Shown piece after piece: positions 5,265-60,405 of a DNA stretch of 64,000 nucleotides. The notes below the pieces were generated by a model. The model was not told the origin of the DNA. It was given only the letters and a program-made list of their open reading frames with translations, and did no database searches. The DNA lies in the NCBI GenBank assembly GCA_003762875.1, contig RIBL01000002.1:248001-312000 (forward strand), written 5' to 3'. Positions within the stretch are counted from its first letter, which is position 1. Every line of letters starts with the position of its first letter. A program made the translations under genes and the position numbers. The stretch comes from Muribaculaceae bacterium Isolate-110 (HZI). GTDB lineage: Bacteria > Bacteroidota > Bacteroidia > Bacteroidales > Muribaculaceae.

Positions 5265-5325
5265 CACAAAAGGACAAAAGCTCCAAAAGAATATTACTTT
5301 TTTGAAACTTTTGTCCTTTTCGTAT
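5265..5325. repeat. Nonamer-built intergenic palindrome (CAAAAG family)
   Basis: The left arm carries three CAAAAG units in 9-base register (ACAAAAGGACAAAAGC, then TCCAAAAG). The right arm reads CTTTTTTGAAACTTTTG, then TCCTTTTCGTATC. The arms are imperfectly complementary across a short AT-rich loop. It lies between the divergent upstream side of the macroglobulin gene and the 3' end of the 158-residue protein gene, so it could terminate that minus-strand operon. See the finding on the repeat family. Confidence 0.7.
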
Positions 5326-5376
5326 CTTCCTGCAAATATCAGGTAATTGTGATACAACTAAATCAATGTGCAGGAT

Positions 5377-5853
5377 TTATTTCTTATGCCTGTTTTTGTT
5401 TTGCTTTTCGGTATGTTTTTTCATCAGTTCGCGTGAGAAATCCCTCTCGGCTTTTTTAAGTTTAAGCAACTGGCGAGGGCTTAGCACGGTCTTGAACTCC
5501 TTGAAATATTTAATCTCGATCTGAGCCTCTTTGGCTTTGAGTTCAAACTGGGCCTCAGCCGCCTTCTCACACTCAAGGTCAGTGGCGGCATCGCCTTTCT
5601 TTCTCACCTCGCGTTCCATGCGCATGGTCTGGTCGGAAATCTTTCGGATTTCGCTCTCCATGCGGTTATAAATGGGTAAAAACTTAGTCTTCTGCTCTTC
5701 GGAAAGCTCGAGTTTGCGCGAAATATAATCGTTCTTATACTGCTGCATCTCTTTCATCCACATCTGACGCTCACGGTCAGTGGGCTTCTGCGCCGTCATG
5801 GCAATGGGGAGCAGCAATAGCGCGATAAGGATAAATAATAGCTTCTTTATCAT
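5377..5853 (-). CDS. Small periplasmic helical protein (Spy/CpxP-like), sigma-factor operon
   Basis: This 158-residue protein has a signal peptide (LLFILIALLLLPIAMTAQ). The mature part is highly charged and probably all-helical, and it ends in a basic tail (KNRHKK). The pattern 'LELSEEQKTKFLPIYNRM' followed by 'VLSPRQLLKLKKAE' resembles the paired LTxxQ-like helices of Spy/CpxP periplasmic stress sensors. It is the last gene of a minus-strand operon, after an ECF sigma factor and an anti-sigma-like protein. In known systems such proteins either feed back on the sigma pathway or act as chaperones. The fold assignment is inference and no catalytic motif is seen. Confidence 0.7.
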   Translation of the reverse strand: MIKKLLFILIALLLLPIAMTAQKPTDRERQMWMKEMQQYKNDYISRKLELSEEQKTKFLPIYNRMESEIRKISDQTMRMEREVRKKGDAATDLECEKAAEAQFELKAKEAQIEIKYFKEFKTVLSPRQLLKLKKAERDFSRELMKKHTEKQNKNRHKK

Positions 5854-5873
5854 AGTTTTTGCGTGATATTTCG

Positions 5874-6290
5874 TTACAATTCGACCTGAATATTGTCGTC
5901 ATGCTCTCCGGGGGTGAACCCTGTCTCATAGAGCGCGTCCATCAGCTCATACTCGCTCACATCGCCCTGAGTCATGACATAGTCGCTCACAAAATAATCA
6001 TTGCCCACGGCTGCGGCAAGCACGGGATTGGAGTCAAACGACAGACCGCTCGTGTCGGGGCGCATGAGGTCAAACATCTTCATCATGCACCACACGCCCA
6101 TAAACATGGCTGCGAGATAGATATACGGACGCACTTTCTGCCAGAAACTGCGAGGCATCACGCGCGGAGCGGGCTTCTCCCACTCGCGCTCAGGCAACGA
6201 GGCCGCCATACGGGCTGCGAAATCGTCGAAATACCCGTCCGGCACGGTCATACCGTCATTGCGGTTCACTTTTTCGAGTATATCTTTCAT
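5874..6290 (-). CDS. Anti-sigma-factor-like single-pass membrane protein
   Basis: This 138-residue protein has a cytoplasmic N-terminal half with an amphipathic start (MKDILEKVNRND). 'VPDGYFDDFAARMAASLPE' resembles the N-terminus of many Bacteroidales proteins encoded after ECF sigma factors. One membrane segment lies near residues 82-100 (YIYLAAMFMGVWCMMKMF), followed by an acidic periplasmic tail. It sits about 50 bases after the sigma factor gene. The role is inferred from position and topology: to sequester the sigma factor and release it on an envelope signal. No zinc-binding HxxxCxxC motif is present, so it is not a classical ZAS anti-sigma factor. Confidence 0.7.
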   Translation of the reverse strand: MKDILEKVNRNDGMTVPDGYFDDFAARMAASLPEREWEKPAPRVMPRSFWQKVRPYIYLAAMFMGVWCMMKMFDLMRPDTSGLSFDSNPVLAAAVGNDYFVSDYVMTQGDVSEYELMDALYETGFTPGEHDDNIQVEL

Positions 6291-6341
6291 TTCCTGTGTC
6301 TTTTAATTATATATCTTTTGACTCCCTTTGTATGCAATGGT

Positions 6342-6902
6342 TTAGTCATAGGAGGAGAAAAATTGCTCAATTTTTTTCACGGCAAGGTGATAAGACGCTT
6401 TAAGCGCGCCGACGGAGGTGCCGAGAATCTCCGACATCTGCTCGTATTTCATGTCGTCATAGTAGCGCATATTAAACACAAGCCGCTGTTTTTCAGGCAA
6501 TCCGGCTATTGCTTCACGCAACAATTGGGCGAGGCGGTCACCGTCGATGTCCTTGTCGGCCTCAATGAGATTGACCAGATGAGACTCCTCGTCGTCAATC
6601 GACAGACCCTGACGCTTGCGCTCTCGTTCCAGATGCGAGAGACTCTCGTTGACCGCAATCTTGTAGAGCCAGGTCGAGAGCTTGGCGTCGCCACGAAAAT
6701 TCTCGATATTCTGCCAGGCCTTGAGAAAAGTATTCTGCAGAAGGTCATTGGCATCGTCATGGCACTGCACCATACGGCGAATCTGACGATACAGAGGCTC
6801 GGTATAGAGCTTTATCATATCGCCAAAAGCCACACGGCAGGTCGAGGGATCCCTCAGCCGCTCCACAAGCTCTATGTCGTCAAGTGATTTTTCAGTAGCC
6901 AT
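6342..6902 (-). CDS. ECF-type RNA polymerase sigma factor
   Basis: This is a 186-residue sigma-70 family protein. Region 2 is near residues 20-85 (DDANDLLQNTFLKAWQNI, then STWLYKIAVNESL). Region 4 is near 125-180 (LPEKQRLVFNMRYYDD, then MSEILGTSVGALKASYHLAVKKIE). A longer frame opens with TTG at 6932, but that TTG lies inside the promoter -10 element (TAATTTTGC, 6929-6937), so ATG at 6902 is chosen. It leads the operon with an anti-sigma-like protein and a periplasmic helical protein, as expected of an envelope-stress module. Target promoters cannot be read from this window. Confidence 0.92.
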   Translation of the reverse strand: MATEKSLDDIELVERLRDPSTCRVAFGDMIKLYTEPLYRQIRRMVQCHDDANDLLQNTFLKAWQNIENFRGDAKLSTWLYKIAVNESLSHLERERKRQGLSIDDEESHLVNLIEADKDIDGDRLAQLLREAIAGLPEKQRLVFNMRYYDDMKYEQMSEILGTSVGALKASYHLAVKKIEQFFSSYD

Positions 6903-6928
6903 CCGTGAGTGATATTCATGTTTAGTGA

Positions 6929-6937
6929 GCAAAATTA
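6929..6937 (-). promoter_or_regulatory. Bacteroidetes -10 element for the ECF sigma operon
   Basis: On the minus strand the sequence TAATTTTGC matches the Bacteroidetes housekeeping consensus TAnnTTTG. It lies about 27 bases upstream of the sigma factor ATG at 6902 and rules out the TTG start at 6932. No clear TTG -33 box is seen. Confidence 0.6.
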
Positions 6938-6995
6938 GGTATAATTATCCACACTCACCACACAGTTTTTAATAATAGATGTTAAGATTAACGGG

Positions 6996-7133
6996 GATAC
7001 AAAAGTTTCAAAAGGACAGAAGAAACATAAGTTTTTTTATTCAACACTCTCTGAGACGGGAGTAAATTATTTTTACCCTTTGTCTTAGTGTAAAAAACTT
7101 ATGTTTCTTCTGTCCTTTTGGAACTTTTGTATC
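6996..7133. repeat. Nonamer-built intergenic palindrome with 43-bp arms
   Basis: The left arm (6996-7039) starts GATACAAAAGTTTCAAAAGG and continues as ACAGAAGAAACATAAG plus a T run. The right arm (7091-7133) is its reverse complement apart from one mismatch and one single-base length difference. The units ATACAAAAG, TTTCAAAAG, GACAGAAGA and AACATAAGT are each nine bases. The loop is about 51 bases and AT-rich. The right arm ends three bases before the Nudix hydrolase stop codon, so on the minus strand it is placed as that operon's terminator. Confidence 0.85.
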
Positions 7134-7136
7134 TTC

Positions 7137-7643
7137 TTACTCGAAAAGCATCATATATTCTCGCTCGAAGTTGGGCGTGAACACCTCGCGCCCTATCGAT
7201 GAGAGTATCTCTTCGCGACACCAGAAGCGTCCGCCGTCAAGCTCATCGGTAGGCGCGGGGGAGCGGTCGCTCACGAGCATGTAGGCATTGACCAGTTCGC
7301 GCTCGCGGTCGCTCTCAAACACATAGCGTCGCAACAGTCTTGCGTCACCGGCCTCAATCTCCAGGCCAAGCTCCTCGCGAGTCTCACGCACGAGCGCGTC
7401 GGTCACCTCCTCGCCATAATCCACATGGCCACCGACTGCTGTGTCCCATTTGCCCGGCTGTATGTCCTTCCACTCAGGGCGTCGTTGCAGATAGAGGCGT
7501 CCGGCGACATCAAACAGATGAAGATGCACTACGGGGTGGAGCAACATGCTCCCACCATGACACTCTCCGCGCGTGGCTTGCCCTATGACATTGCCTTCTG
7601 TGTCGACAAGCGGGAAGAGTTCCTGACTGTTGTCACTGTTCAT
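7137..7643 (-). CDS. Nudix hydrolase (YfcD-like)
   Basis: This 168-residue protein has a complete Nudix box near residues 72-95 (GHVDYGEEVTDALV, then RETREELGLE). The preceding segment 'FPLVDTEGNVIG', then 'RGECH' and 'LQRRPEWKDIQPGKWDTAV', is typical of the YfcD/IPP-isomerase-like branch. ATG at 7643 is chosen because it overlaps the pectinesterase stop codon as ATGA; the longer frame from 7703 would extend 60 bases into that gene. The substrate is unknown, and members hydrolyse nucleoside-diphosphate-linked compounds. The 4-base overlap implies translational coupling to the pectinesterase, an odd pairing of a cytoplasmic and a secreted enzyme. Confidence 0.88.
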   Translation of the reverse strand: MNSDNSQELFPLVDTEGNVIGQATRGECHGGSMLLHPVVHLHLFDVAGRLYLQRRPEWKDIQPGKWDTAVGGHVDYGEEVTDALVRETREELGLEIEAGDARLLRRYVFESDRERELVNAYMLVSDRSPAPTDELDGGRFWCREEILSSIGREVFTPNFEREYMMLFE

Positions 7644-8938
7644 TTTGCAGCCTCTACTGCGGCTCCGAGACCGCCCATCTGATTGGCCGCACGCACTGAC
7701 CACCGGTCAGTCTTGGCAGCCTTACCTATATTATAGCTGGTATCGACGGTAAAGTCGACCACCTTACCGTTACGGCATATGGCATAGAGCAGAGCGTCGT
7801 CACTGCCGGTCCAGGAGAGACGCCCTTTGACTAGGCGTACATCTCTGACAGGAGTGGCCTCGCCGGTGAGCTGAACGGGCTCCCATTCGCCGAGCACATT
7901 GGCACGGGTATACACGGCTGCCTCAGCGTCGGAAAGCACGGCATGGTTGAGATGGGTCTTGCCATCCTTATCGGTGTAAAGCGAGCGACGTCCGTTGAGA
8001 TCCACAGCTTCGCCCGAGGCCAGGCGGGTACCATTCTCGGCAAATATCGCCGGCCAGCCGCCACTCATGTCGGCCCATCCGTTATATCCGCGTTTGTCCT
8101 TAGTGATAGGAGCAGTGTCGACCTTGGTGTCAATCCATATGGCGCGTGGTGTGCCTTTACCCCAGGGACGGCCGAGATAATAGGTGACATCGGGGTTCTC
8201 GCTCTTTATGTAGCAGCCGAGCATCACGTAGCCGAAATTGCGCGGCACGGAAGGCACGGCAAGATAGCCGCCTTTGCCACACTGCTGAAAGGTGACGCCT
8301 TCATAAACTACGTCTCCCTTGCCGCAGATGTAATCAGTGCGGCCGCGTATGACTCCGCCGTCAAAGTAGAAACGGCCCTGCTGATTATTGCTGACATAGG
8401 TGTCCTGATAGCCCCAGATGCAGATATTTTTGGCCACCGTGAGGTCAGAGCGGTCATGGAGCACGATGTTTCGGCCTGTGTGGTCGGCCATGCCGCTGCG
8501 CATGGTGAGGTCCTGAAGATAGGTGCATGTGGCGGGGCTCTCGATAATGAGCACATCGCCACGACCTATGCCTTCGAGGGGGTTGGCTTTGCCGAAACCG
8601 TTGTCCCACGTAGCCTCGGGCACAGTGTTGGTGAGCACGGTGAGGTCTCGATCTTCGCCTATTATAGATGTGTTGGGGGCTTTGAGATAGGAGCGGGCAT
8701 CGCCATACTCCTTACCGTCGCCGCCGGTAGTGATGCCTTCGGTGGGTATCACATAGTCACCCTGCATTATGAATATACGGAAACGCGCGGTGGTATCCTC
8801 GCGGTTGTTGGCCGCATCGAGGGCCTGACGAAACGAGCCGTCACGCGGCACTACGAAATCATACAGTTGCTTTGACTGCGTCCGGCCGGTCAGACCGAAC
8901 GACACTGCGACAAGCAGAAAAAGGAATAATCGTTTCAT
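7640..8938 (-). CDS. Secreted pectinesterase (carbohydrate esterase family 8)
   Basis: This 432-residue protein has a signal peptide (MKRLFLFLLVAVSFGLTGRTQ) and a right-handed beta-helix pectin methylesterase domain to about residue 335. The catalytic signatures are intact: GYQDTYVSN (Gln and Asp), then GRTDYICGKGDVVYEG (the second Asp, equivalent to VDFIFG), and LGRPWGKG (Arg and Trp). It removes methyl esters from homogalacturonan so that pectate lyases can act. A fibronectin-III-like tail (RLSWTGSDDALLYAICRNG) follows at about 350-425. It probably acts in the periplasm or at the cell surface. A pectate lyase gene lies divergently about 440 bases away, but no SusC/SusD pair is nearby. Confidence 0.93.
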   Translation of the reverse strand: MKRLFLFLLVAVSFGLTGRTQSKQLYDFVVPRDGSFRQALDAANNREDTTARFRIFIMQGDYVIPTEGITTGGDGKEYGDARSYLKAPNTSIIGEDRDLTVLTNTVPEATWDNGFGKANPLEGIGRGDVLIIESPATCTYLQDLTMRSGMADHTGRNIVLHDRSDLTVAKNICIWGYQDTYVSNNQQGRFYFDGGVIRGRTDYICGKGDVVYEGVTFQQCGKGGYLAVPSVPRNFGYVMLGCYIKSENPDVTYYLGRPWGKGTPRAIWIDTKVDTAPITKDKRGYNGWADMSGGWPAIFAENGTRLASGEAVDLNGRRSLYTDKDGKTHLNHAVLSDAEAAVYTRANVLGEWEPVQLTGEATPVRDVRLVKGRLSWTGSDDALLYAICRNGKVVDFTVDTSYNIGKAAKTDRWSVRAANQMGGLGAAVEAAK

Positions 8939-9017
8939 GATATTGTGTGATGTAATAATGATGACGCGATTGGCTACGGATGCTTTATTGCCCTAAGCAG
9001 GCAGGGGTAATAAAAGT

Positions 9018-9050
9018 GAAAGCCGGACTCTCCGTAGAATCCGGCTTTCG
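9018..9050. terminator. Hairpin downstream of tRNA-Glu
   Basis: GAAAGCCGGA and TCCGGCTTTC form a 10-bp stem around an 11-base loop, immediately downstream of the minus-strand tRNA. The following minus-strand sequence is only modestly T-rich, so termination efficiency is uncertain. Confidence 0.55.
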
Positions 9051-9056
9051 GGCTTG

Positions 9057-9129
9057 TAGCGAATCCGGGATTCGAACCCGGGTTTCCGCCGTGAGAGGGC
9101 GGCGTGCTAGGCCTCTACACTAAATCGCC
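9057..9129 (-). tRNA. tRNA-Glu (anticodon CUC)
   Basis: Read on the minus strand from GGCGATT, the 73 bases fold into a cloverleaf. The D-arm is GTGT/GCAC with GG in the loop. The anticodon stem CCGCC/GGCGG encloses CTCTCAC, giving anticodon CTC. The T-arm is CCGGG-TTCGAAT-CCCGG. The acceptor stem ATTCGCT pairs with GGCGATT apart from one G-U and one T-T. CCA is not encoded, so the CCA-adding enzyme found at 14108 would be needed. The anticodon reads glutamate GAG codons. Confidence 0.93.
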
Positions 9130-9190
9130 ATTCAGTGGGCTTTTCTTTCGAGACTCATCATTTAGGAGTGGTGTCCCTCAGAATTGCGAT

Positions 9191-9222
9191 GCAAAGTTAT
9201 GGACTTTTTCTATACCATGCAA
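9191..9222 (-). promoter_or_regulatory. Promoter of tRNA-Glu
   Basis: On the minus strand TTG (9220-9222) and TAACTTTGC (9191-9199) are separated by 20 bases, matching the Bacteroidetes -33/-7 layout. The predicted transcript starts about 55 bases before the mature tRNA. Confidence 0.75.
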
Positions 9223-9302
9223 GAGTTTATATTCATTTTAACATCATTTTAACACTTAACCACCTTTTTCAGCACTGTTCATCACTTTTCCTTATTTAAT
9301 TA

Positions 9303-9333
9303 TTGTATTTATTGGGATTAATTGTTACTTTTG
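9303..9333 (+). promoter_or_regulatory. Promoter of the pectate lyase gene
   Basis: TACTTTTG (9326-9333) matches TAnnTTTG, with ATTG about 20 bases upstream (9302-9305). Transcription would start near 9339, about 40 bases before ATG 9381. This excludes the in-frame ATG at 9303. Confidence 0.65.
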
Positions 9334-9380
9334 CCGAGATTACATGTGAAAGACACAACAACTACACACAAAAAAATATC

Positions 9381-11726: not shown

Positions 11727-11754
11727 CAACATACAGATAAGACTGTACTCCTGA

Positions 11755-11926
11755 AAAAAGGACAAAAGTTACAAAAGTTTTTTATTTCAGACATCAGTAT
11801 CGGAGTATTATGAAATTCACTGTGGAAACAAACCCAGTGATATTTTACGGACAAAAAGACTCCAATATTCATGTAAATGAAATAAAAACTTTTGTAACTT
11901 TTGTCCTTTTGAAACATTTGTATCTC
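11755..11926. repeat. Nonamer-built palindrome with a long structured loop
   Basis: The left arm (about 11757-11787: AAAAGGACAAAAGTTACAAA, then AGTTTTTTATTT) is complementary to the right arm (about 11880-11910). The loop of about 90 bases contains further short complementary pieces (GGAGT with ACTCC, CACTG with CAGTG). The right flank continues GAAACATTTGTATCT, the recurring family end. It lies between the pectate lyase and the META lipoprotein gene. Confidence 0.75.
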
Positions 11927-11935
11927 TTTTTTGAG

Positions 11936-11944
11936 TAATTTTGC
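11936..11944 (+). promoter_or_regulatory. -10 element for the META lipoprotein gene
   Basis: TAATTTTGC matches TAnnTTTG exactly and lies 66 bases before ATG 12010. The best TTTG upstream is at a non-ideal spacing. Confidence 0.5.
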
Positions 11945-12009
11945 AGATTATATGCACAAACGCCCTCCGGGGACGTTATAATTCTATAATCATCATATAA
12001 ACGAAAATT

Positions 12010-15550: not shown

Positions 15551-15653
15551 AGTTGAAAGTTTAGAGGTGAAAGTTTATACATAGCATGGCGGATTCTCAT
15601 CACTGATTCATCTCTAAACTTCCGACAAATCTATGCATAAACTCTAAACTTTA
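15551..15653. repeat. Intergenic palindrome of GTTTAGAG/GAAAGTTTA units
   Basis: The left part has 9-base units (GTTGAAAGT, TTAGAGGTG, AAAGTTTAT) before ACATAG. The right part reads CTATGCATAAACTCTAAACTTT. The arms pair if one unit of roughly 8-9 bases is skipped on the right. It lies between cca and queD and resembles the CAAAAG palindromes in design but not in unit sequence. Confidence 0.6.
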
Positions 15654-19855: not shown

Positions 19856-19878
19856 ATACGACATATCGAAAAACAAAC

Positions 19879-19948
19879 GGACAAAAGATTCAACAGGAAC
19901 AAAAGTTTAGATTGTTATAAACTTTTGTTCCTGTTGAATCTTTTGTCC
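19879..19948. repeat. Perfect 31-bp-arm nonamer palindrome between convergent genes
   Basis: The left arm has units GGACAAAAG, ATTCAACAG and GAACAAAAG plus TTTA. The right arm (19918-19948) is the exact reverse complement, with an 8-base loop. It lies between the convergent ends of the C10 protease gene and pgi and could terminate both. GTATCTTTT follows on the right, as in other members. Confidence 0.85.
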
Positions 19949-19964
19949 TTCTGTATCTTTTAGA

Positions 19965-31810: not shown

Positions 31811-31855
31811 GGAATGTTGAATGTGGAGTCTGTGTCACTCCACATCCAACATTCC
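31811..31855. repeat. Palindrome of GGAATGTTG/AATGTGGAG units
   Basis: The 19-bp arms (31811-31829 and 31837-31855) match except at one position, with a 7-base loop. The left arm consists of two near-9-base units. On the plus strand it is followed by TGTTTTTTT. It lies between the flavin reductase stop and the glyA start, and on the minus strand could end the pyrB-pyrI-reductase transcript. Confidence 0.75.
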
Positions 31856-36063: not shown

Positions 36064-36091
36064 TTAAAAATTTAGAGTTGAAAGTTTAAGC
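36064..36091 (+). repeat. Short GTTAAA/TTTAGAGTT tandem units
   Basis: AGAGTTAAAAATTTAGAG followed by TTGAAAGTTTAAG consists of degenerate units similar to those at 15551-15653, here without an inverted partner. It occupies the gap between the ABC ATPase and permease genes. Confidence 0.5.
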
Positions 36092-41410: not shown

Positions 41411-41436
41411 TTCAGAGAGTTTAGAGTTTAGGACCT
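41411..41436 (+). repeat. Short GAGTTTAGAGTTTAG tandem units
   Basis: AGAGAGTTTAGAGTTTAGGA followed by CCTAAAC is a truncated version of the GTTTAGAG repeat with only a short palindromic end (GTTTAGG/CCTAAAC). It immediately follows the carboxynorspermidine dehydrogenase gene. Confidence 0.5.
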
Positions 41437-44631: not shown

Positions 44632-44634
44632 TAT

Positions 44635-44730
44635 AGATACAAAAGAATCAAAAAGACAAAAGAAACATCAGTCTAATGTAACCTCATTCAAGACTGATGT
44701 TTCTTTTGTCTTTTTGATTCTTTTGTATCT
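44635..44730. repeat. Perfect 40-bp-arm nonamer palindrome between convergent genes
   Basis: The arms at 44635-44674 and 44691-44730 are exact reverse complements around a 16-base loop. Units are ATACAAAAG, AATCAAAAA, GACAAAAGA and AACATCAGT. It starts AGATAC and ends GTATCT. The right end is two bases from the stop of the gene at 44732, and the left end is four bases past the stop of the gene at 44631. Placement fits a bidirectional terminator. Confidence 0.9.
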
Positions 44731-44731
44731 A

Positions 44732-45664
44732 TTACAGCTCCACTGTAAATTTAGGAGTAAGAATGCATCCGAGCGACGCCTTGAAGTCACATAGACCGGG
44801 TGAGGGTATGCCGTCGGATGAAGATGGCCCTATGTCGAGCTTGCGCCGGCCACATCGGGCAAAATGACAGAACGTCTCATAGGCGAGCTTATTCATTGGC
44901 CGCAGTTCGGAATATCCCGACACATCGCCCCAATAGACCACCTGCGATATGTCATGCGCGACATCATAGGCAAGCACAGCAGCCACATCCGCGCCTTCAT
45001 GCGACAGAACCATAAACGTACACTTTATTATCCGCGAAGTGGCCTTGACGTCATCAAGACTCATGCGCAACGGATAGCCGTGGCTCTCGCGGTTGGCCTT
45101 GATTATGCCATACACCCGCTCTATGTCGGCATCACATCCGTCAAGCACTTCAAAATGCCAGTCATATCTTGAAGCTTTGGCAAAATTCTTACGCGCGGCG
45201 CGGCTGCACAAGTGCTCAAACTCGTCTACTCTATCCAGGTCATAATGATAGTTATAATCTACATACGACGTGCGAGCCCCGCCTGTCATCATGGCGCAAT
45301 ACTGCTTGCCATAGACACTGTGGCTGTCATATAATGCCGGAGGCAGAGACATCACGACTCCACATCCGCAACCGGCCGCATATCGCCTCAGAGCGTCAAC
45401 AGCCCCGACATACCGCTCGACACTCTGAACGCCACGCTCCTCGATGCCTCCGAACGGAGCGGAGAAGGGTGATTTAAGCACTTCGCCTCTTAGTCCGAGT
45501 ACAACGCCAAAGCGCACCTTGCCCTTGTCGTCACAGATTGTGAGATAATGCATATCCTCACACTTGTGACGGTTGAGTTCATTGAACTCTACCGTATTGA
45601 ACACATGCGACGGTGTCGCAAACAGTTCACCATATTCCCGAGGAGTACATCTTACGACATGCAT
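44732..45664 (-). CDS. FemAB/GNAT-like acyltransferase-fold protein
   Basis: This 310-residue soluble protein has an N-terminal half containing 'HVFNTVEFNELN' and 'KSPFSAPFGGIE'. The C-terminal half has a GNAT-like core: 'IIKANRESHGYPLRMSLDDV' then 'MVLSHEGADVAAVLAYD' and 'VVYWGDVSGYSELRPMNKLAYE'. Similar proteins belong to the FemAB-like Acetyltransf_6 group that transfers acyl or aminoacyl groups in envelope polymer synthesis. The substrate is unknown. It is 17 bases downstream of the Sua5 gene and may be co-transcribed with it. Confidence 0.7.
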   Translation of the reverse strand: MHVVRCTPREYGELFATPSHVFNTVEFNELNRHKCEDMHYLTICDDKGKVRFGVVLGLRGEVLKSPFSAPFGGIEERGVQSVERYVGAVDALRRYAAGCGCGVVMSLPPALYDSHSVYGKQYCAMMTGGARTSYVDYNYHYDLDRVDEFEHLCSRAARKNFAKASRYDWHFEVLDGCDADIERVYGIIKANRESHGYPLRMSLDDVKATSRIIKCTFMVLSHEGADVAAVLAYDVAHDISQVVYWGDVSGYSELRPMNKLAYETFCHFARCGRRKLDIGPSSSDGIPSPGLCDFKASLGCILTPKFTVEL

Positions 45665-50007: not shown

Positions 50008-50088
50008 AAAAAGTTAAAAAAGCTCAAAAAGTTAAGATAATAGCATACATCACACTGAACTATTATCTTAACTTTTTTAACTTTATAG
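50008..50088. repeat. Palindrome of AAAAAGTTA units with one unit missing from the right arm
   Basis: The left arm reads AAAAAGTTA, AAAAAGCTC, AAAAAGTTA, then AGATAATAG. The right arm is the reverse complement except that it lacks a near-unit-length stretch (CTCAAAAA). It lies between kdsB and the heptosyltransferase gene. The length difference is close to one 9-base unit, suggesting unit gain or loss. Confidence 0.75.
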
Positions 50089-50112
50089 AGTCTTTTAACA
50101 AATACAAAATCC

Positions 50113-52957: not shown

Positions 52958-52985
52958 GTCAAAAAAGTAGGGGTAAAACAAAAAA

Positions 52986-53016
52986 TTGCATGCGTTAAAA
53001 GAAAATTGTATTTTTG
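52986..53016 (+). promoter_or_regulatory. Promoter of the small lipoprotein gene
   Basis: TTG (52986-52988) and TATTTTTG (53009-53016) are 20 bases apart, a good Bacteroidetes promoter. Transcription would start about 30 bases before ATG 53050 and after the alternative start at 53014. Confidence 0.7.
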
Positions 53017-53049
53017 TGTGTTAATAAAGGTAACAAAAGTTTATCTGAT

Positions 53050-53436
53050 ATGAATCACTTGCCACTTCCCGCAAAAAAATTGCTTCGCTATCCGGGGCTT
53101 CTTCTTGTCATGCTCCTGACAGTCACAACACTCACGTCATGCGAGCCCGACGATGACAACGTCTTCTACTACGACATCGCAGGCCGATGGATGGAGGTGG
53201 CACCCTACTATGGTGACATCTATGACTTTAACAGCGATGGCACCGGCTACTGCTATTACGAGGACGGAGATTACTCCTACTTTGAATGGGAAGCCGACAA
53301 CTATTATCTGACTCTTTATTTCACTAACGGTTATGAAGAGACAGTCGAATATTACTCATGGTCGTTTCAGGGCAACTCGCTCTACCTCTACCCCAACTAC
53401 GACACCTCCAATCCACTCGTGCTAAAACCATATTAA
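53050..53436 (+). CDS. Small lipoprotein, beta-rich, unknown family
   Basis: The protein is 128 residues from ATG 53050. A start at 53014 lies inside the -10 box of the promoter and is rejected. It has a lipobox LTSC (Cys about 31). The mature part is rich in Tyr/Asp, with alternating strands like 'YYDIAGRWMEVAPYYGDIYDF', 'DGTGYCYYEDGDYSYFEWE' and 'YSWSFQGNSLYLYP', resembling small lipocalin-like domains of Bacteroidales lipoproteins. No specific function is recognised. The GSCFA gene begins seven bases after its stop. Confidence 0.82.
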   Translation: MNHLPLPAKKLLRYPGLLLVMLLTVTTLTSCEPDDDNVFYYDIAGRWMEVAPYYGDIYDFNSDGTGYCYYEDGDYSYFEWEADNYYLTLYFTNGYEETVEYYSWSFQGNSLYLYPNYDTSNPLVLKPY

Positions 53437-53443
53437 CCCGCCA

Positions 53444-54409
53444 ATGGACTTCCGCACCGAAATCAAGCCGGAACCGGGGCATGAGGGTATGATTTCACAC
53501 ACCGGCCCGGTAGTGCTTATAGGGTCGTGCTTTACCGACAACATCGGGACCTGTATGCGCGACGAACTGTTTGACGTCACTGTCAATCCCTTCGGTCCCA
53601 TCTACAATCCCGCATCGGTGAGACGCGCCATCGAGACCATCGTTGACCGTCGGCATGTGGAGACTGACGAGCTTTTCGAGCACGAAGGACATAGTCACAG
53701 CTTCCTGTTTCACTCACGCTACTCGGCCCCGACACGTGCCGAGGCTATGCTCAAAATGAACTCGAGCATCGAGTCGGCATGCGAAGCACTGAAAAATGCC
53801 GATATATTGATAATCACCCTCGGCACAACGCGGGTGTTTTGCCTCACCGATTCAGGCGACGTCGTGGCCAACTGCCACAAACTTCCACCAAAAACGTTTC
53901 ATGAGCGACAGTTGTCGCTCAACGAGTGCGTGACTCATCTGACCGCGCTCACCGACAAGGCCCGCAGCCTCAATCCCGGTGTGCGTCTGCTATTCACTGT
54001 AAGCCCCCTGCGATACCTCAACAACGGCGCGCATACCAACACGCTGTCAAAATCGACACTCTTTCTGGCTATCGACCGACTCATGAAAGAGCGCGACAAC
54101 ATATATTACTTCCCGTCCTACGAAATAATGATGGACGATCTGCGCGACTATCGCTTCTATGCCGAGGACATGAAGCACCCCACACTCCAGGCCGTCGGTT
54201 ACATCTACTCTATATTCAGCGACACCTATTACTCTCCATCCACACGCGAACTCGCCCGTCGGTGCGGACGATTCACCCGCCGTCTGGCCCACCGCCCGCT
54301 CGGTGCGGCTCCTGACGCCAAATTAAACGACACGATAATCAACGAATTTAAACGAACCAATCCCAACCTGTCGTCGATCGTCGACAGGTATATTTCAGAT
54401 GGAATATAG
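53444..54409 (+). CDS. GSCFA family protein (SGNH-type hydrolase fold)
   Basis: This 321-residue protein has the name-giving motif IGSCFTDNIG (residues about 26-35), then 'VNPFGPIYNPASV', 'EHEGHSHSFLFHSRY', 'ILIITLGTTRVF' and 'FTVSPLRYLNNG'. It belongs to the SGNH-like hydrolase group, often beside cell-wall genes; its substrate is unknown. It overlaps the murF-alr gene by 11 bases, so the two are translated together, which suggests a role in peptidoglycan or envelope synthesis. Confidence 0.9.
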   Translation: MDFRTEIKPEPGHEGMISHTGPVVLIGSCFTDNIGTCMRDELFDVTVNPFGPIYNPASVRRAIETIVDRRHVETDELFEHEGHSHSFLFHSRYSAPTRAEAMLKMNSSIESACEALKNADILIITLGTTRVFCLTDSGDVVANCHKLPPKTFHERQLSLNECVTHLTALTDKARSLNPGVRLLFTVSPLRYLNNGAHTNTLSKSTLFLAIDRLMKERDNIYYFPSYEIMMDDLRDYRFYAEDMKHPTLQAVGYIYSIFSDTYYSPSTRELARRCGRFTRRLAHRPLGAAPDAKLNDTIINEFKRTNPNLSSIVDRYISDGI

Positions 54410-56876
54410 CATTACCAAGATAGCCTCACTAATCGGAGCCGACTTACGGGTCCGTCATGACGATACAATCACATCTCTGCTCACCGACAGCCGTTCTCTC
54501 CTCGAGCCGGACAGCACACTTTTCTTTGCCCTGCGCACCCCCTCAGGTGACGGTCACAGATACATCTCGCAGCTCTACCTGCGTGGGGTCCGCAACTTCG
54601 TGGTCGAGCAAGTGCCGGAAGATGCAGTCTCAATGCCCGAGGCTAATTTTCTGATCACAGAGTCTCCGCTCGAGGCATTGCAGACAATCGCCTCACATTG
54701 TCGCCGCGACAGCAAGGCCACTGTCATAGCCATTACCGGCAGCCGCGGCAAGACTACGGTCAAGGAGTGGATATACCGGCTGATAAGTCCCGATAAGCTC
54801 ACCGTGCGCTCGCCACGCAGCTTCAACTCCCAGACAGGCGTTCCACTGTCACTCTGGCAGCTCACCCCCGACACCGAGACCGCAATAATCGAGGCCGGAA
54901 TATCTCAACCCGGCGAAATGGCCAGGCTGGAGAGAATAATCGAGCCGCGGATTGGCGTCTTCACCAACATCGGAGCCGCCCACAGCCGTGATTTCGGCTC
55001 TATCGAAGAGAAGTGCCGAGAGAAGGCACAGCTTATGAAAAGATGCAGCCATGTGGTGTATTGCGCCGACAATGACCTCATAGCATCCTCTCTTCCCGTA
55101 GGGCCTGAACGCGTAGCCTGGACACGCTGTGACGTGCCTGACGCCATGCTCAAGGTCACATCGGTCGAAAGACACAACGGTGTCACAACCATAAGATATA
55201 ACTGGACTCCGACCGCTACCGACGGCGAGACCACCATACCGTTTACCTCCGAGCGCGACATCGAGAATGCCCTGCACACTCTCACCGTGTCGCTTCTCTC
55301 GGGCATCGCTCCGGCCGACATCTCGACCCGCATGGCCTCGCTGCGCCCCGTCAACACCCGCCTCGAGGTGGTCGACGGCGTACACGGATGTCAACTCATA
55401 CACGACACATTCTCATCTGACATCACATCGCTCACGCTGGCCCTCGACTTTGCCCATAGACGCAGCATCCCGGGCCACAGTGTCACACTCATCGTGGGTG
55501 ACCTCTCAGCTCAAGGCTCTGACCCGGCCCGTGCCTATGCTCTCGCCGGCAAACTCGCACGCCAGTATGACATAAACCGCATCATAGCCATCGGGCATGA
55601 AATCAACCGCTATGCCGACCTCCTGCCCCTGAACAAAAGTATATATGCCGACGTCGATGAGTTTCTGAAAACAGAGCACACCGAGTCGTTTCAGGACCAG
55701 CTCGTGCTCATCAAAGGTTCACCCGAAGAGCCGTTCGACTCCATAGCCCGCATGCTTGAGAAGCGTCGCCATGAGACTGTGCTTGAGATAAATCTCGACG
55801 CAGTGGTCGATAATTTCAACTTTTTCCGATCCCACATACGCCCGACTACAGGCATATCCTGCATGATCAAGGCCTCGGGCTACGGAGCCGGCTCACACGA
55901 GCTCGCCAAGACTCTCCAGAGCCAGGGTGCGACATATCTTGCAGTTGCCGTTCATGACGAAGGTGTCGATCTGCGTCAGGCCGGTATCACCATGCCCATC
56001 ATAGTGCTCAACCCCGCCGTCGACGATCTAAGCACCATCTTTGACAACCGTCTGGAACCGGAAATATACTCGCTCGACTTTCTCCGCAGCCTCATCGCCG
56101 AGGCCACCCGACGCGGCATCAAGGGCTACCCTGTACACATCAAAATCGACTCGGGCATGCACCGTCTGGGCTTCCGTCTCGAGACTCTGCCCGAAGTCAT
56201 CGAAGTGCTGCGCGGTGAGGACAGTGTAGTGCCTGCAAGCATCTTCTCTCATCTATGCGCAGCCGACGACCCGCAGGAGGATAACTACACGCGTGGCCAG
56301 TTTGATTACTTCGAAAGTTGCTGCAACATGCTTCTCCAGGCTTTCCCTCAGCATAAAATACTCCGTCACATACTCAACTCCACCGGCATCACGCGCTTTC
56401 CCGAGCGGCAATACGACATGGTGCGTCTCGGCATAGGTCTCTATGGCATACGTACCATGCATGACGGCTCGCAGGACGCCCTGCGCCCTGTGTCATCGTT
56501 GCGCACATCGATTATCTCGCTCAAACACTGGCCGGCCGGCACCACCATCGGTTATAACCGACGCGGACTCCTGTCGCGCAACTCTGTAATAGCCACCATA
56601 CCCATAGGCTATGCCGACGGACTCAACCGCCATCTGGGCTATGGCAACGCATCGTTCAGTGTGAGGGGCGTGAAGTGTCCCACCGTGGGCAGCATATGTA
56701 TGGACGCATGCATGATAGATGTCACCGGTGTCACCGGTGTGGAGACCGGCGACCGCGTGGAAATATTCGGCGAAACCATCCCTGTCGAAACACTCTCCGA
56801 CACCCTCGGCACCATCCCCTACGAAATACTCACCTCCGTGTCACAACGCGTCAAGCGAGTATATTACCGCGAATAA
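54399..56876 (+). CDS. murF-alr: Fused MurF ligase-alanine racemase
   Basis: This 825-residue protein has an N-terminal MurF part (about 1-455): Walker loop ITGSRGKTTVKEW, 'NSQTGVPLSLWQL', 'IIEAGISQPGEMA' and 'HDTFSSDITSLTLALD'. The C-terminal alanine racemase (about 460-825) has the PLP lysine in CMIKASGYGAGSHEL, 'HIKIDSGMHRLGFR', 'HLCAADDPQEDNY' and 'VGSICMDACMIDVT'. It makes D-Ala and adds D-Ala-D-Ala to UDP-MurNAc-tripeptide, supplying a substrate for its own neighbour domain. This fusion is known in Bacteroidetes. It overlaps the GSCFA gene by 11 bases. Confidence 0.95.
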   Translation: MEYSITKIASLIGADLRVRHDDTITSLLTDSRSLLEPDSTLFFALRTPSGDGHRYISQLYLRGVRNFVVEQVPEDAVSMPEANFLITESPLEALQTIASHCRRDSKATVIAITGSRGKTTVKEWIYRLISPDKLTVRSPRSFNSQTGVPLSLWQLTPDTETAIIEAGISQPGEMARLERIIEPRIGVFTNIGAAHSRDFGSIEEKCREKAQLMKRCSHVVYCADNDLIASSLPVGPERVAWTRCDVPDAMLKVTSVERHNGVTTIRYNWTPTATDGETTIPFTSERDIENALHTLTVSLLSGIAPADISTRMASLRPVNTRLEVVDGVHGCQLIHDTFSSDITSLTLALDFAHRRSIPGHSVTLIVGDLSAQGSDPARAYALAGKLARQYDINRIIAIGHEINRYADLLPLNKSIYADVDEFLKTEHTESFQDQLVLIKGSPEEPFDSIARMLEKRRHETVLEINLDAVVDNFNFFRSHIRPTTGISCMIKASGYGAGSHELAKTLQSQGATYLAVAVHDEGVDLRQAGITMPIIVLNPAVDDLSTIFDNRLEPEIYSLDFLRSLIAEATRRGIKGYPVHIKIDSGMHRLGFRLETLPEVIEVLRGEDSVVPASIFSHLCAADDPQEDNYTRGQFDYFESCCNMLLQAFPQHKILRHILNSTGITRFPERQYDMVRLGIGLYGIRTMHDGSQDALRPVSSLRTSIISLKHWPAGTTIGYNRRGLLSRNSVIATIPIGYADGLNRHLGYGNASFSVRGVKCPTVGSICMDACMIDVTGVTGVETGDRVEIFGETIPVETLSDTLGTIPYEILTSVSQRVKRVYYRE

Positions 56877-56887
56877 TCACCATCACA

Positions 56888-58381
56888 TCATCCGGCTGAG
56901 GAATCCTCGGTAATCACAAGCAGTTTGTCTCCGACAAAGAGACGGCGTGTGCCGTTGGGCACCATATATCGGTCGCCGCGCTTGATCATCATCACAAGCG
57001 AACCCTCGGGCAGCGACATGTCACGGAGCGTATTGCCGTCGGCAAGATGACGCTCCGTGAGCACTATGGTGTGGAGCGAGGTAGGAAGCTCGTCGGCAAG
57101 TTCGACACCGAAATCATCCTCGTCGATGCTCTCCTCATCCACAAGTCCCAGCCGTCGGGCCGAACGTATGACCGTAGTGCCCTGAATCAGCAATGACAGC
57201 AGCGTGACAAAAAACACTATATTGAATATGAGTCCGGCTCCTTCGAGTCCGGCCACCACAGGATAGGTGGCAAAGATTATGGGAACAGCTCCGCGCAATC
57301 CCACCCACGAAATCCACACCTTGGAACGGGTGGTTATGTTGCGGAAAGGAGCCAGCGAGAGAAACACGCTGAGCGGACGCCCTACGAGTATCATAAACAC
57401 ACCGATGAGCAGCGAGACGGCCGCCACGTCAAGCATCTCGTGAGGATTGACAAGCAGTCCGAGCATAAGAAAGACCACAATCTGCATGAGCCAGGTCATA
57501 CCGTCCATAAATTTGCTGATGCCGCGATGGTTGGGCAGACGCTCGTTGCCAAGCACTATGCCGCATATATACACGGCCAGATAGCCATTGCCGGCAAGCT
57601 CGGTAGTGGCCGAGAAGGTGAGAAACACCGACCCGAGCACCAGTATCGACAGCATGGCGGTGGCCTGTGAGGGGTCTTCGTCGTGACCGGCCTTGCCACC
57701 CCAACGCCTGTAAAGGTCGATGAGCCTTACAGTCAGCTTGCCCATGGCCCAGCCCATGCCTCCGCCTATGCCAAACTGCATCAGCAACTGGCCGGCCACT
57801 TTCCAGCCCGACAGCTCGCCCCCGAGGGTTATTGTCTCTATAAGTATAATGGTGAGCATATAGGCCATAGGGTCGTTAGAACCGCTCTCGAGCTCCAGGA
57901 GGGGACGCAGATTATGGCGCATACCCACTTTCTGGCTACCGAGTATGCCGAACACCGACGCCGAGTCGGTCGACGACATCGTGGCCGCAAGAAGCAGCGA
58001 CGGCATAAAGGCAAAATGGATATTGGTCCAGCTCAGACCCGAAAGAAACCATATGAACAGACCGGTCACAAGAGCCGTAAGCAGCACTCCGACTGTCGAC
58101 AGCACAAGTCCGGGCGCGATAACAGGACGTATGGCTGAAATCTTGGTGCCCATACCGCCTGAAAACAGTATGACACACAGGGCTATCATGCCTATGAACT
58201 GGGCCGTGTGCATGTCACTGAACTGTATACCGACACCGTCCGTGCCGAAGCCCATGCCCACAAGCAGGAATATAAGCAGCAACGGCAGTCCCACACGATA
58301 GCTCGACTTTCCTATCAGCACGCCCGCGATGAGCAGCACCGAACCGATGAGCATGATGCCCTCAAACGTTAGAATCTCCAT
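56888..58381 (-). CDS. Potassium/proton antiporter (CvrA/NhaP2-like)
   Basis: The protein is 497 residues from ATG 58381. The longer frame to 58468 runs into the opposite promoter region and is rejected. About 12 membrane helices of the CPA1 family lie to about residue 390, with 'TDSASVFGILGSQ', 'LLELESGSNDPMAYML' and 'LRGAVPIIFATYPV'. A TrkA-C domain ends the protein (about 410-495: LPTSLHTIVLTERHL, then NGTRRLFVGDKLLVI). It exports potassium or sodium for protons. Its -10 element ends five bases before the start codon. Confidence 0.93.
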   Translation of the reverse strand: MEILTFEGIMLIGSVLLIAGVLIGKSSYRVGLPLLLIFLLVGMGFGTDGVGIQFSDMHTAQFIGMIALCVILFSGGMGTKISAIRPVIAPGLVLSTVGVLLTALVTGLFIWFLSGLSWTNIHFAFMPSLLLAATMSSTDSASVFGILGSQKVGMRHNLRPLLELESGSNDPMAYMLTIILIETITLGGELSGWKVAGQLLMQFGIGGGMGWAMGKLTVRLIDLYRRWGGKAGHDEDPSQATAMLSILVLGSVFLTFSATTELAGNGYLAVYICGIVLGNERLPNHRGISKFMDGMTWLMQIVVFLMLGLLVNPHEMLDVAAVSLLIGVFMILVGRPLSVFLSLAPFRNITTRSKVWISWVGLRGAVPIIFATYPVVAGLEGAGLIFNIVFFVTLLSLLIQGTTVIRSARRLGLVDEESIDEDDFGVELADELPTSLHTIVLTERHLADGNTLRDMSLPEGSLVMMIKRGDRYMVPNGTRRLFVGDKLLVITEDSSAG

Positions 58382-58386
58382 AATGT

Positions 58387-58395
58387 GCAAAATTA
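58387..58395 (-). promoter_or_regulatory. -10 element five bases before the antiporter start
   Basis: The minus-strand TAATTTTGC ends five bases before ATG 58381, implying a leaderless or near-leaderless mRNA, as at 46950-46958. Confidence 0.65.
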
Positions 58396-58441
58396 GTGAA
58401 ATTATTCGTGAAAGCCTAATGAGGTTTTTTACTTTTTTATG

Positions 58442-58449
58442 TACTTTTG
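58442..58449 (+). promoter_or_regulatory. -10 element for purF
   Basis: TACTTTTG matches TAnnTTTG and lies 21 bases before ATG 58471, giving a short leader. Confidence 0.55.
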
Positions 58450-58470
58450 TGGCGTAATAAGCCAACATAG

Positions 58471-60360
58471 ATGGAGATACTCAAACACGAGTGTGGCGTG
58501 GCAATGATACGCCTGCTCAAACCGCTTGAATATTATAAGCAGAAGTATGGCGCGTATGCCTACGGTCTTAACAAGCTCTACCTCCTCATGGAGAAGCAGC
58601 ACAACCGCGGGCAGGAAGGCGCAGGTATAGGAGTCGTGAAACTACATTCACTCCCGGGCAACGAATATGTCTATCGCGAACGCGCTCTGGGCAAGGACGC
58701 CATCCAGGAGATTTTCGACACGGTCAGAGGCAAAGTGGCCCACTATGATGTCGACTCGCTGTCGGCACGGCAGGTCGAGGAGGATGTGCCGTTTATCGGA
58801 GAAATCTATATGGGCCATCTGCGCTACTCGACCACAGGCAAGAGCGGCATCTCATATTGCCACCCCTTCCTGCGTCGCAACAACTGGCGCGCGCGTAACC
58901 TGCTGATGTGCGGCAACTTCAACATGACCAATGTCGACACCATCTTTCAGGAGGTGATCAAGAGCGGACAGCATCCACGCATCTACAGCGACACTGTGAT
59001 ACTGCTCGAACAGCTCGGTGCGGCTCTCGACAAGGAAAACCACCGCATCTACCGCCAGTATCGCGACTCGCTCGACGAACCGTTGCTCACCAACACCATC
59101 GAGGACAATCTCGACATCACACGAGTGCTCTCATCCACAGCTCCCGCATGGGACGGCGGATTTGTCATCTGCGGAGCCACCGGATCGGGTGACATGTTTG
59201 CCCTGCGCGACCGCCACGGCATACGCCCCGCGTTTTACTATTATGACGATGAAATCGTGGTGCTCGCATCCGAGCGTCCAGTAATCCAGACTGTGCTCGA
59301 CGTAGCGCGCCGCGAAGTCAACGAACTCGCCCCGGGCAGCGCGCTCATCGTCGACAAGGCCGGACGTGTCAAAGTCACCGACATACTCGGCGAAGACACT
59401 AACCAGCGATGCTCGTTTGAGCGCATATACTTCTCGCGAGGAAGCGACGCCGACATCTATCGCGAGCGCAAGCAGCTCGGAGCCAACCTTGTGCCACAGA
59501 TCATGCAAAGCATCGGTGGCGACATAGCCCACACGGCGTTCTCATTCATCCCCAATACGGCCGAAGTAGCATTCATAGGCATGGTGTCAGGATTTGAGGA
59601 CGAACTCAACAAAGTCAAGACTACACAGATACTCAACGCGCAGACTGCCGGCACACTCAACGAACAACGTCTCAACGAAATCATGAGCCAGCGTCTGAGA
59701 GTCGAGAAAGTGGCAATCAAAGACATCAAACTACGCACATTTATCACCGAAGGCGACTCGCGCAACGACCTTGCCGCCCACGTCTATGACGTCACTTACG
59801 GCATCGTCGAAAACAACGTGGACACCCTCGTGGTGATTGACGACAGCATCGTGAGAGGCACCACGCTCAAACAGTCGATACTCCATATGCTCGACCGTCT
59901 GCACCCGCGCAAGATTGTAGTCGTGTCCTCCTCACCCCAGGTGCGCTATCCCGACTACTATGGCATCGACATGTCGCGTATGGGCGAGTTCATAGCCTTC
60001 CGCGCAGCCGTCGAACTGCTCAAAGACAAAGGCATGGACTACATATTGCGCGAGACATATGACCGCTGCCGCCAGCAGGAAGGACTCCTCGACTTTGAGA
60101 TAACCAACTGCGTCAAAGCGGTCTATGCTCCCTTCACACAGGAGGACATCTCACGCAAGATAGCTGACATGCTCACAGCCGACGGCTCCATTTCGGCCGA
60201 AGTCGACATTATCTATCAGTCACTTGACGGACTTCACTCGGCAATCGCCGACCATCCTGGCGACTGGTACTTCTCGGGCAACTATCCGACCCCGGGCGGC
60301 ACACGCCTTGTCAACCGCGCCTTCATAAACTACTACGAAGGCAACGTCGACAAACGCTGA
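58471..60360 (+). CDS. purF: Amidophosphoribosyltransferase (PurF-like, long form)
   Basis: This 629-residue protein has a class II glutamine amidotransferase domain with the nucleophile Cys8 (KHECGVAMIRLLKP), so a seven-residue propeptide must be removed. 'QHNRGQEGAGIGVV' and 'YMGHLRYSTTGKSG' follow. The PRTase domain has 'CSFERIYFSRGSD' and the PRPP loop VIDDSIVRGTTLKQSI near 460. It makes 5-phosphoribosylamine, the first purine step. The protein is over 100 residues longer than classical PurF, with an extra C-terminal part (about 520-629) found in Bacteroidetes. Confidence 0.93.
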   Translation: MEILKHECGVAMIRLLKPLEYYKQKYGAYAYGLNKLYLLMEKQHNRGQEGAGIGVVKLHSLPGNEYVYRERALGKDAIQEIFDTVRGKVAHYDVDSLSARQVEEDVPFIGEIYMGHLRYSTTGKSGISYCHPFLRRNNWRARNLLMCGNFNMTNVDTIFQEVIKSGQHPRIYSDTVILLEQLGAALDKENHRIYRQYRDSLDEPLLTNTIEDNLDITRVLSSTAPAWDGGFVICGATGSGDMFALRDRHGIRPAFYYYDDEIVVLASERPVIQTVLDVARREVNELAPGSALIVDKAGRVKVTDILGEDTNQRCSFERIYFSRGSDADIYRERKQLGANLVPQIMQSIGGDIAHTAFSFIPNTAEVAFIGMVSGFEDELNKVKTTQILNAQTAGTLNEQRLNEIMSQRLRVEKVAIKDIKLRTFITEGDSRNDLAAHVYDVTYGIVENNVDTLVVIDDSIVRGTTLKQSILHMLDRLHPRKIVVVSSSPQVRYPDYYGIDMSRMGEFIAFRAAVELLKDKGMDYILRETYDRCRQQEGLLDFEITNCVKAVYAPFTQEDISRKIADMLTADGSISAEVDIIYQSLDGLHSAIADHPGDWYFSGNYPTPGGTRLVNRAFINYYEGNVDKR

Positions 60361-60363
60361 CAC

Positions 60364-60405
60364 CCTCTATACTCTCTCTATACTTTCCCCTCTATACTCT
60401 ATACT
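60364..60405 (+). repeat. Tandem CTCTATACT units
   Basis: CTCTATACT occurs in tandem with slight variation (CTCTATACTCTCTCTATACT, then TTCCCCTCTATACTCTATACT), again a 9-base unit. It sits directly before ATG 60410, after purF. No inverted arm is seen. Confidence 0.55.

What the first reader, a model, noticed from the sequence alone, without database searches (positions are those of the whole stretch)
5265..60405. A dispersed family of intergenic palindromes built from degenerate 9-base units
At least five loci (5265-5325, 6996-7133, 11755-11926, 19879-19948, 44635-44730) share NNNCAAAAG units in 9-base register on one arm and their complement on the other. Their right ends are followed by or contain GTATCT. 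Others use different 9-base units but the same plan (15551-15653, 31811-31855, 50008-50088), and some are half copies (36064-36091, 41411-41436, 60364-60405). Members sit at 3' ends of genes or between convergent genes, and are far more AT-rich than the genes around them. The unit sequence differs between loci while unit length and palindromic form are kept, which points to a repeat-copying process rather than simple duplication. I do not recognise it as a named repeat class; it may be described under a name I cannot recall.
Basis: partly seen in the sequence, partly recalled or inferred. Interest (0 to 1): 0.75.

Follow-up and report, generated by a model that had tools for sequence, protein, structure and literature searches.

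The report
Word-built hairpins ending bacterial genes
This bacterium has dozens of long hairpin-forming repeats, built from a variable 8-9-letter DNA word, placed just after its genes where transcription should stop; the two arms stay mirror images even as the words change between copies and species.

Summary
CAAAAGNNNCAAAAG occurs 106 times in this genome against 1 for the reversed control. Of 38 palindromes read, 21 lie between convergent genes, 17 between codirectional genes, none in divergent gaps or inside called genes; all are within 53 nt of a called stop codon. Consensus: GATAC-AAAAGGAC-AAAAGTCTC-AAAAGAAAC-AAAAG-TTTTTT, a loop, then the mirror image. Arms match within a copy (distance 0.065) far better than between copies (0.25), with compensatory changes and mirrored indels. 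Words differ between species; the degenerate run matches 16 of 198 family genomes. The 5' arm is purine-rich and the 3' arm U-rich, as in bidirectional terminators. Of six informative orthologous sites, three in relatives have a different hairpin, two none, one a dialect version. Best reading: a dispersed family of bidirectional intrinsic terminators, spreading by whole-element copying, with arms kept complementary by template switching, selection, or both. Termination and mechanism are inferred. No mobilising enzyme was found. One reader locus (5268) overlaps a called ORF's 5' end.

The parts
5268..5320 (.). CAAAAG-family palindrome, degenerate, 26-bp arms; about 56 nt beyond the stop of the minus-strand ORF 5377-5853 and overlapping the 5' end of the called ORF 3-5357
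   Evidence: (z -4.5)
6996..7133 (.). CAAAAG-family palindrome, type B order (GATAC-AAAAGTTTC-AAAAGGAC-AGAAGAAAC-ATAAG-TTTTTT), 42-bp arms, 54-nt loop, 3 nt beyond the stop of the NUDIX gene
   Evidence: z -14.4
11755..11926 (.). CAAAAG-family palindrome, 27-bp perfect arms, 101-nt loop; right arm keeps outer units (...GAAACATTTGTATC) that the left arm lacks
19873..19954 (.). CAAAAG-family palindrome filling most of the gap between convergent peptidase C10 and PGI genes; called terminator-like on both strands
   Evidence: (z -12.7)
44633..44732 (.). CAAAAG-family palindrome, 42-bp perfect arms, fills the gap between convergent genes
   Evidence: z -16.6
50008..50095 (.). Sister palindrome with 9-nt unit AAAAAGTTA/AAAAAGCTC, between codirectional genes
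   Evidence: (z -4.6)
31811..31855 (.). 19-bp-arm hairpin with GAATGT words; other word family, between codirectional genes
   Evidence: (z -6.2)
15551..15653 (.). TTTAGAG-type (7-nt unit) imperfect palindrome directly between a stop codon and the next gene; absent at this site in two relatives
   Evidence: (z -2.2)
36064..36091 (+). single-arm TTTAGAG-type half copy, no hairpin
41411..41436 (+). single-arm TTTAGAG-type half copy, no significant hairpin
60364..60405 (-). single-arm CTCTATACT-type half copy, no hairpin

Best explanation
A dispersed family of long palindromic elements (about 40-180 bp) that act as bidirectional intrinsic transcription terminators. The purine-rich 5' arm and U-rich 3' arm fold into a roughly 20-70 bp hairpin in RNA from either strand, right after the stop codon. 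Each 8-9 nt step of the 3' arm repeats a U-run (CUUUUG), so the hairpin could offer a ladder of stop points. Elements arise at new sites by copying the whole element. Within a copy the arms are then kept complementary by hairpin-templated template switching during replication, by selection on the stem, or by both. That lets the words drift together into species dialects. Shown here: placement, polarity, covariation, mirrored indels, whole-element copying. Inferred: termination, the ladder, and the molecular mechanism of copying.
For: Of 38 elements, 21 lie in convergent and 17 in codirectional gaps, 0 in divergent gaps and 0 in called genes. Background gaps >40 nt in 462 kb: 30 convergent, 148 codirectional, 33 divergent (convergent excess p 1.8e-7; divergent lack p 0.004). 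By one search's table all 38 lie within 53 nt of a called stop; 15 of 17 codirectional ones are nearer the upstream stop than the next start; in 16 of 21 convergent gaps at most 52 nt remain outside the element. Polarity: among all inverted repeats of score >=20 the 5' arm is purine-rich in 23 of 25 (this genome; one further tie), 37 of 42 (G117) and 21 of 21 (G034, from stretches chosen for word hits) (copies within a genome are related, so not independent). A relative has another hairpin at the PGI site and at the L149 and 5265 sites. Arms: within-copy distance 0.065 against 0.25 between copies, 11 of 23 identical, 0 of 5000 permutations as low; G034 0.157 against 0.275-0.295, 0 of 5000. Covariation on 15 of the 38: 25 double-change cells against 7.8 shuffled, 0 of 500. 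Two C79 copies share arms and loop but not flanks (flank identity 11/60 and 21/60) and differ by a mirrored insertion and two mirrored substitutions, among other changes. A register change between species at one shared site is mirrored in both arms.
Against: No transcript data. The elements are AT-rich with U-runs inside the stem, not a short GC stem plus U-tail; the terminator scan found one of the five CAAAAG elements in the stretches scanned (19890-19937, both strands) plus a small hairpin inside the loop of 6996, and its totals do not clearly exceed shuffles (17 against 14.8; 9 against 9.3; the scan allows loops of 3-8 only). 5268 overlaps a called ORF. At two of six informative orthologous sites the relative has no strong hairpin (L029, L150). 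The hairpin near the 6996 site in G117 lies beside a tRNA gene there and is not evidence. In G570 the words form tandem runs; only 3 left runs had a mirrored partner and arm matching was no better than chance (2526 of 5000). Many left runs lack a partner (15 in G000, 13 in G034, 10 in G570). The C79 copies also show one-sided changes. Covariation was measured on elements chosen for having both arms. One G034 site has no element here.
Confidence: 0.57

Rival explanations
1. A non-autonomous mobile element (MITE- or REPIN-like) moved by a transposase; 3'-end placement only reflects where insertion is harmless.
For: Whole elements, arms plus loop, are copied to sites with unlike flanks. Hit number differs sharply between species (106 here; 0-20 in 148 family relatives). 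At an orthologous site the element can be absent (L029 site in G117).
Against: No target duplication is evident by eye at the printed ends (not tested statistically). The one Y1_Tnp/RAYT match in the genome has other palindromes beside it and no CAAAAG word in its 3.3-kb locus. Codirectional gaps would receive insertions anywhere, yet 15 of 17 sit at the stop-codon side. Type A loops are mostly unrelated beyond their T-rich ends.
Confidence: 0.25
2. mRNA 3'-end stabilisers or RNase III processing hairpins, with termination done by Rho or by other signals.
For: Very stable hairpins right after stop codons; E. coli PU/BIME and Neisseria/Yersinia palindromic repeats are reported as stability determinants (passages of PMC2267715).
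Against: In 16 of 21 convergent gaps at most 52 nt are left outside the element, so there is little room for another signal; purine-to-pyrimidine arm polarity fits termination better than stability alone.
Confidence: 0.1
3. A short protein-binding or DNA-uptake word that happens to be paired into hairpins, as in Haemophilus and Neisseria.
For: Paired uptake words form terminators in Neisseria and Pasteurellaceae and are enriched in tail-to-tail gaps of N. meningitidis (PMC1852404 passages); uptake words have dialects (PMC3630211, title and start of abstract in the listing).
Against: Here the words come in runs of 3-4 per arm in 8-9 nt register; 0 of 38 palindromes lie in called genes. The single word CAAAAG and competence genes were not tested.
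Confidence: 0.05

Closest known systems
Bidirectional intrinsic (Rho-independent) terminators
   Same: Hairpin after stop codons, enriched between convergent genes, A-rich 5' side and U-rich 3' side on both strands
   Different: Stem is roughly 20-70 bp, AT-rich, repeat-built, and belongs to a dispersed sequence family; U-runs are inside the stem. TransTermHP has a rule against stems made of paired A- and T-tails (passage of PMC1852404), but it needs runs of five; whether it would drop these was not tested
Paired DNA uptake sequences acting as terminators (Haemophilus, Neisseria)
   Same: A short 9-11 nt word in inverted pairs at gene ends; lineage dialects
   Different: Several words per arm in 8-9 nt register, variable words, uptake not tested here
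REPINs and RAYTs (PMC3116915, passages)
   Same: Two inverted arms plus spacer forming a hairpin, extragenic, copied within one genome, single-arm remnants
   Different: No RAYT with these repeats; arms here are long and periodic; the genome's one RAYT match has other palindromes beside it
Template-switch-made hairpins (Monttinen and Loytynoja 2022, PMC8794818; abstract, start of text and outline seen)
   Same: Reverse-complement copies create and repair stems, giving apparent compensatory changes
   Different: Described there on RNA genes; here it would act on a dispersed terminator-like family
PINSR of Prevotella (PMC4755523; passages seen)
   Same: Lineage-specific dispersed repeat of similar size in Bacteroidales
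   Different: A 188-bp consensus; no periodic palindrome is described in the passages seen

Membership tests
Bidirectional intrinsic terminator | Stable RNA hairpin directly downstream of stop codons | tested here: met
   38 elements placed; four CAAAAG window elements folded
Bidirectional intrinsic terminator | U-rich 3' side on both strands | tested here: met
   5' arm purine-rich 23 of 25; 3' arm T 0.45 against A 0.24, all strong inverted repeats
Bidirectional intrinsic terminator | Classical short GC stem followed by separate U-tract | tested here: inconclusive
   one of five elements (19890-19937) fits, on both strands; scan totals do not clearly exceed shuffles
Bidirectional intrinsic terminator | Transcripts end there | not testable with these tools
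   no RNA data
REPIN/RAYT | RAYT gene flanked by the same palindrome | tested here: not met
   one match, no CAAAAG word in its 3.3-kb locus
REPIN/RAYT | Inverted doublet with spacer forming a hairpin, extragenic | tested here: met
MITE of a DD(E/D) transposon | Target-site duplication | tested here: inconclusive
   none evident by eye at the ends printed
MITE of a DD(E/D) transposon | Matching autonomous element | not tested
   IS ends were not searched
Paired DNA uptake sequence | Word abundant as singles across the genome | not tested
   only multi-word runs were counted
Known RNA family (Rfam 15) | Match above gathering score | tested here: not met
   only a tRNA in the window

The most novel reading that the evidence does not exclude
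A self-spreading terminator: a hairpin family whose arms are rewritten by template switching (arm to arm, and probably site to site), so that an 8-9 nt 'word' evolves in concert across dozens of gene ends as a species dialect, while terminator function at each site is kept. The 9-nt step would match the RNA-DNA hybrid length of RNA polymerase (recalled) and give a ladder of stop points.
Probability: 0.3. Interest if true: 0.75.

Novelty: new variant of a known kind. Interest (0 to 1): 0.55.

Why it matters
It would link two processes usually studied apart, the spread of small repeats and the turnover of transcription terminators, and give a bacterial system with many sites in which template-switch maintenance of hairpins can be separated from selection. 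It also suggests that many gene ends in such species carry terminators unlike the textbook form, which predictors tuned to short GC stems may miss (not tested here beyond).

Tried and rejected
RAYT/REPIN origin: the one Y1_Tnp match sits in a 3.3-kb locus with other palindromes and no CAAAAG word. Virus-borne spread: 26 viral contigs match CANAAGGACANAAGNNNCANAAG, none with a mirrored run within about 280 bases; many look collagen-like or coding by eye. GATACAAAAGRACARAAG: 0 of 392 other genomes of the order, of which five are from this family. CANAAGGACANAAGNNNCANAAG: 0 of 295 other genomes of a phylum draw that held two others of this order and none of this family. Rfam: nothing but a tRNA. 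Literature for the word itself: nothing relevant; the words are repeats recalled from other phyla, a lead only. A first arm count with overlapping triples confused registers and was replaced. G570 gives words but few mirrored arms. The 6996 site was first counted as an exchanged terminator; one search shows a tRNA-Glu gene beside the relative's hairpin, which resembles the hairpin beside the window's own tRNA, so it was dropped. The rho-like site (read as rho by eye; a Pfam check failed on a wrong frame) carries a TTTAGAG-type palindrome here, not CAAAAG.

Order and family are the tool's kinship ranks; Muribaculaceae is only my guess (looked the name up). An enriched TAACTTTGC word fits a Bacteroidota promoter box (recalled).
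Full report
What was checked. The letters at all eleven places were printed, inverted repeats in the window listed, and CAAAAGNNNCAAAAG counted in the whole genome: 54 forward and 52 reverse hits against 1 and 0 for the reversed pattern. The five CAAAAG places are genuine inverted repeats. The others differ: one true 9-nt sister (50008), one 7-nt family (15551), one roughly 8-nt hairpin (31811), and three single arms without significant structure.

Anatomy. Palindromes with at least two CANAAG words in one arm numbered 38 in 587 kb of this genome; part of that sequence was fetched around word hits, so this is not a density. All 38 have the purine word on the left. Two orders of the same words are common. 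Type A reads GATAC-AAAAGGAC-AAAAGTCTC-AAAAGAAAC-AAAAG-TTTTTT, often with GGGGA outside, then a loop that is mostly unique beyond its T-rich ends. Type B reads GATAC-AAAAGTTTC-AAAAGGAC-ATAAGAAAC-ATAAG-TTTTTT; several B copies hold a nested GACAGGAGTACAGGAG palindrome in the loop. All inverted repeats of score >=20 and arm >=24, picked without regard to words, show lag 9 (z 4.4) and lag 7 (z 3.2) in 462 kb here, lag 8 (z 3.9) in 1.6 Mb of G117, and lags 8 and 9 (z 4.6, 4.7) in 257 kb of G034; the G034 stretches and 40 kb of this genome were themselves chosen for word hits. In G117 the amplified word is CAGGAGAA: CAGGAGNACAGGAG has 25 hits there, 19 here, 1 in G150 and 0 in the other 24 genus genomes, with 1 control hit.

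Placement. With a home-made codon-score gene caller, 21 of 38 lie between convergent genes, 17 between codirectional genes, 0 between divergent genes and 0 in genes. Gaps over 40 nt in 462 kb number 30, 148 and 33 (Fisher tests: 1.8e-7 and 0.004). From that table all 38 are within 53 nt of a called stop and 15 of 17 codirectional ones are nearer the upstream stop than the next start. Of 34 convergent gaps, 25 hold an inverted repeat of score 13 or more (3 were too long to score); CAAAAG elements are one class among these.

Polarity. Across all inverted repeats of score >=20 the 5' arm is purine-rich in 23 of 25, 37 of 42 and 21 of 21 cases (this genome, G117, G034). A DNA palindrome has no need of this; RNA whose 3' arm should be U-rich does.

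Arms change together. Pairing each left word run with the nearest right word run, without using complementarity, 23 pairs here have arm distance 0.065 against 0.25 between copies; 11 of 23 are identical, while 4 of 253 pairs of left arms are; 0 of 5000 permutations reach it. G034: 14 pairs, 0.157 against 0.275-0.295, 0 of 5000. G570: 3 pairs, no signal (2526 of 5000). Unpaired left runs were 15, 13 and 10. On an alignment of 15 of the 38 elements, 94.3% of cells pair, with 25 double-change cells against 7.8 in shuffles (0 of 500) and at most 4 when slid. Two copies on contig C79 are alike from AGATAC to GTATCTAT through arms and loop; outside, ungapped identity is 11/60 and 21/60. They differ by two mirrored substitutions, a mirrored single-base insertion in the nested palindrome, a longer one-sided stretch near the loop and some one-sided substitutions. 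One copy (L020) lacks an 8-nt unit in one arm. The longest perfect arm seen is 68 bp (C1:191564).

Relatives. CAAAAGNNNCAAAAG stands well above control in G034 (20 against 2) and G108 (12 against 0) among 148 other family genomes; G128 has 9 against 0, mostly one sequence and not examined; the rest have at most 6. The looser CANAAG run with an 8-nt then a 9-nt step matches 16 of 198 family genomes: G034 110, this genome 77, G570 39, G108 14, G054 6, G146 5, G577 4, G117 3, the rest at most 2; controls total 3. A narrower form (second linker GA) was not found in 295 other genomes of a phylum draw that held no other family member. Wording differs between species.

Orthologous sites. Of 41 elements, 7 gave a gap flanked by the same two genes in G117 or G034. 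L026 (read by eye as a histone-like gene) has an element in both species, with a 44-bp perfect arm in G034, a different dialect and a register change mirrored in both arms. L149 has another word-like hairpin, 5265 a short hairpin, L029 and L150 no strong hairpin; two were coding stretches by eye and uninformative. The PGI side of 19873 has a GC-richer hairpin in G117. That makes six informative sites: three other hairpins, two none, one dialect version. The G117 hairpin near 6996 lies beside a tRNA gene and does not count. For other word families, the TTTAGAG element at 15551 is absent in G117 and G034, and a rho-like gene (by eye) with a 48-bp-arm TTTAGAG-type palindrome here has a GC-rich hairpin in G034, followed there by a CAAAAG-type half run. 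In the reverse direction 2 of 46 G034 clusters resolved: the same shared site and one without an element here. Whether the shared site was retained or filled twice is not settled.

Interpretation. Placement, polarity and hairpins of other kinds at some orthologous sites make bidirectional termination the likeliest function (inferred; no RNA data). Joint arm change can come from selection for pairing or from hairpin-templated template switching, described for RNA genes (PMC8794818; abstract, start of text and outline). Mirrored indels and a 68-bp perfect arm favour templating, but selection and recency are not excluded. Whole-element copying is shown; the agent is unknown. Known parallels are uptake-sequence terminators (PMC1852404, passages) and REPINs (PMC3116915, passages); the RAYT criterion is not met. 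Searches that listed no description of this repeat; the library holds open-licence papers only.

Noticed in passing
L031:1200-2000 (G000 C25 near 191010): A single RAYT-like gene with palindromes such as GATGTCCCGTCGGGACATC and GTATGCATCC...GGATGCATAC beside it, a separate REP-type repeat; CCGTATGCATCC also occurs as an inverted repeat on C57.
   Followed up: partly
L031:520-1160: Small nucleotidyltransferase-like ORF followed by a HEPN-like ORF, which looks like an MNT-HEPN toxin-antitoxin pair (read by eye, no search run).
   Followed up: no
G000 C1:87576-87758: ATTAGTAATTAG repeats: the strongest enriched 12-mer turns out to be one local array.
   Followed up: partly
L154:12792-12971 and L158 (G034): Inverted arrays of a 9-nt unit NNNAATARG, a further word dialect with imperfect arms.
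   Followed up: no
L152, L157, L159 (G034): Repeated palindrome TGTAGGGACGCGCTGTAGCGCGTATGCC, a GC-rich family of its own.
   Followed up: no
L053 (G108): Single arms repeated head to tail about every 61 bp, so half elements may also amplify in tandem.
   Followed up: partly
L099 (G152): PGI 3' site filled by a long inverted array of CGCAGAG/CGCAAAG words, resembling repeats I recall from many phyla.
   Followed up: no
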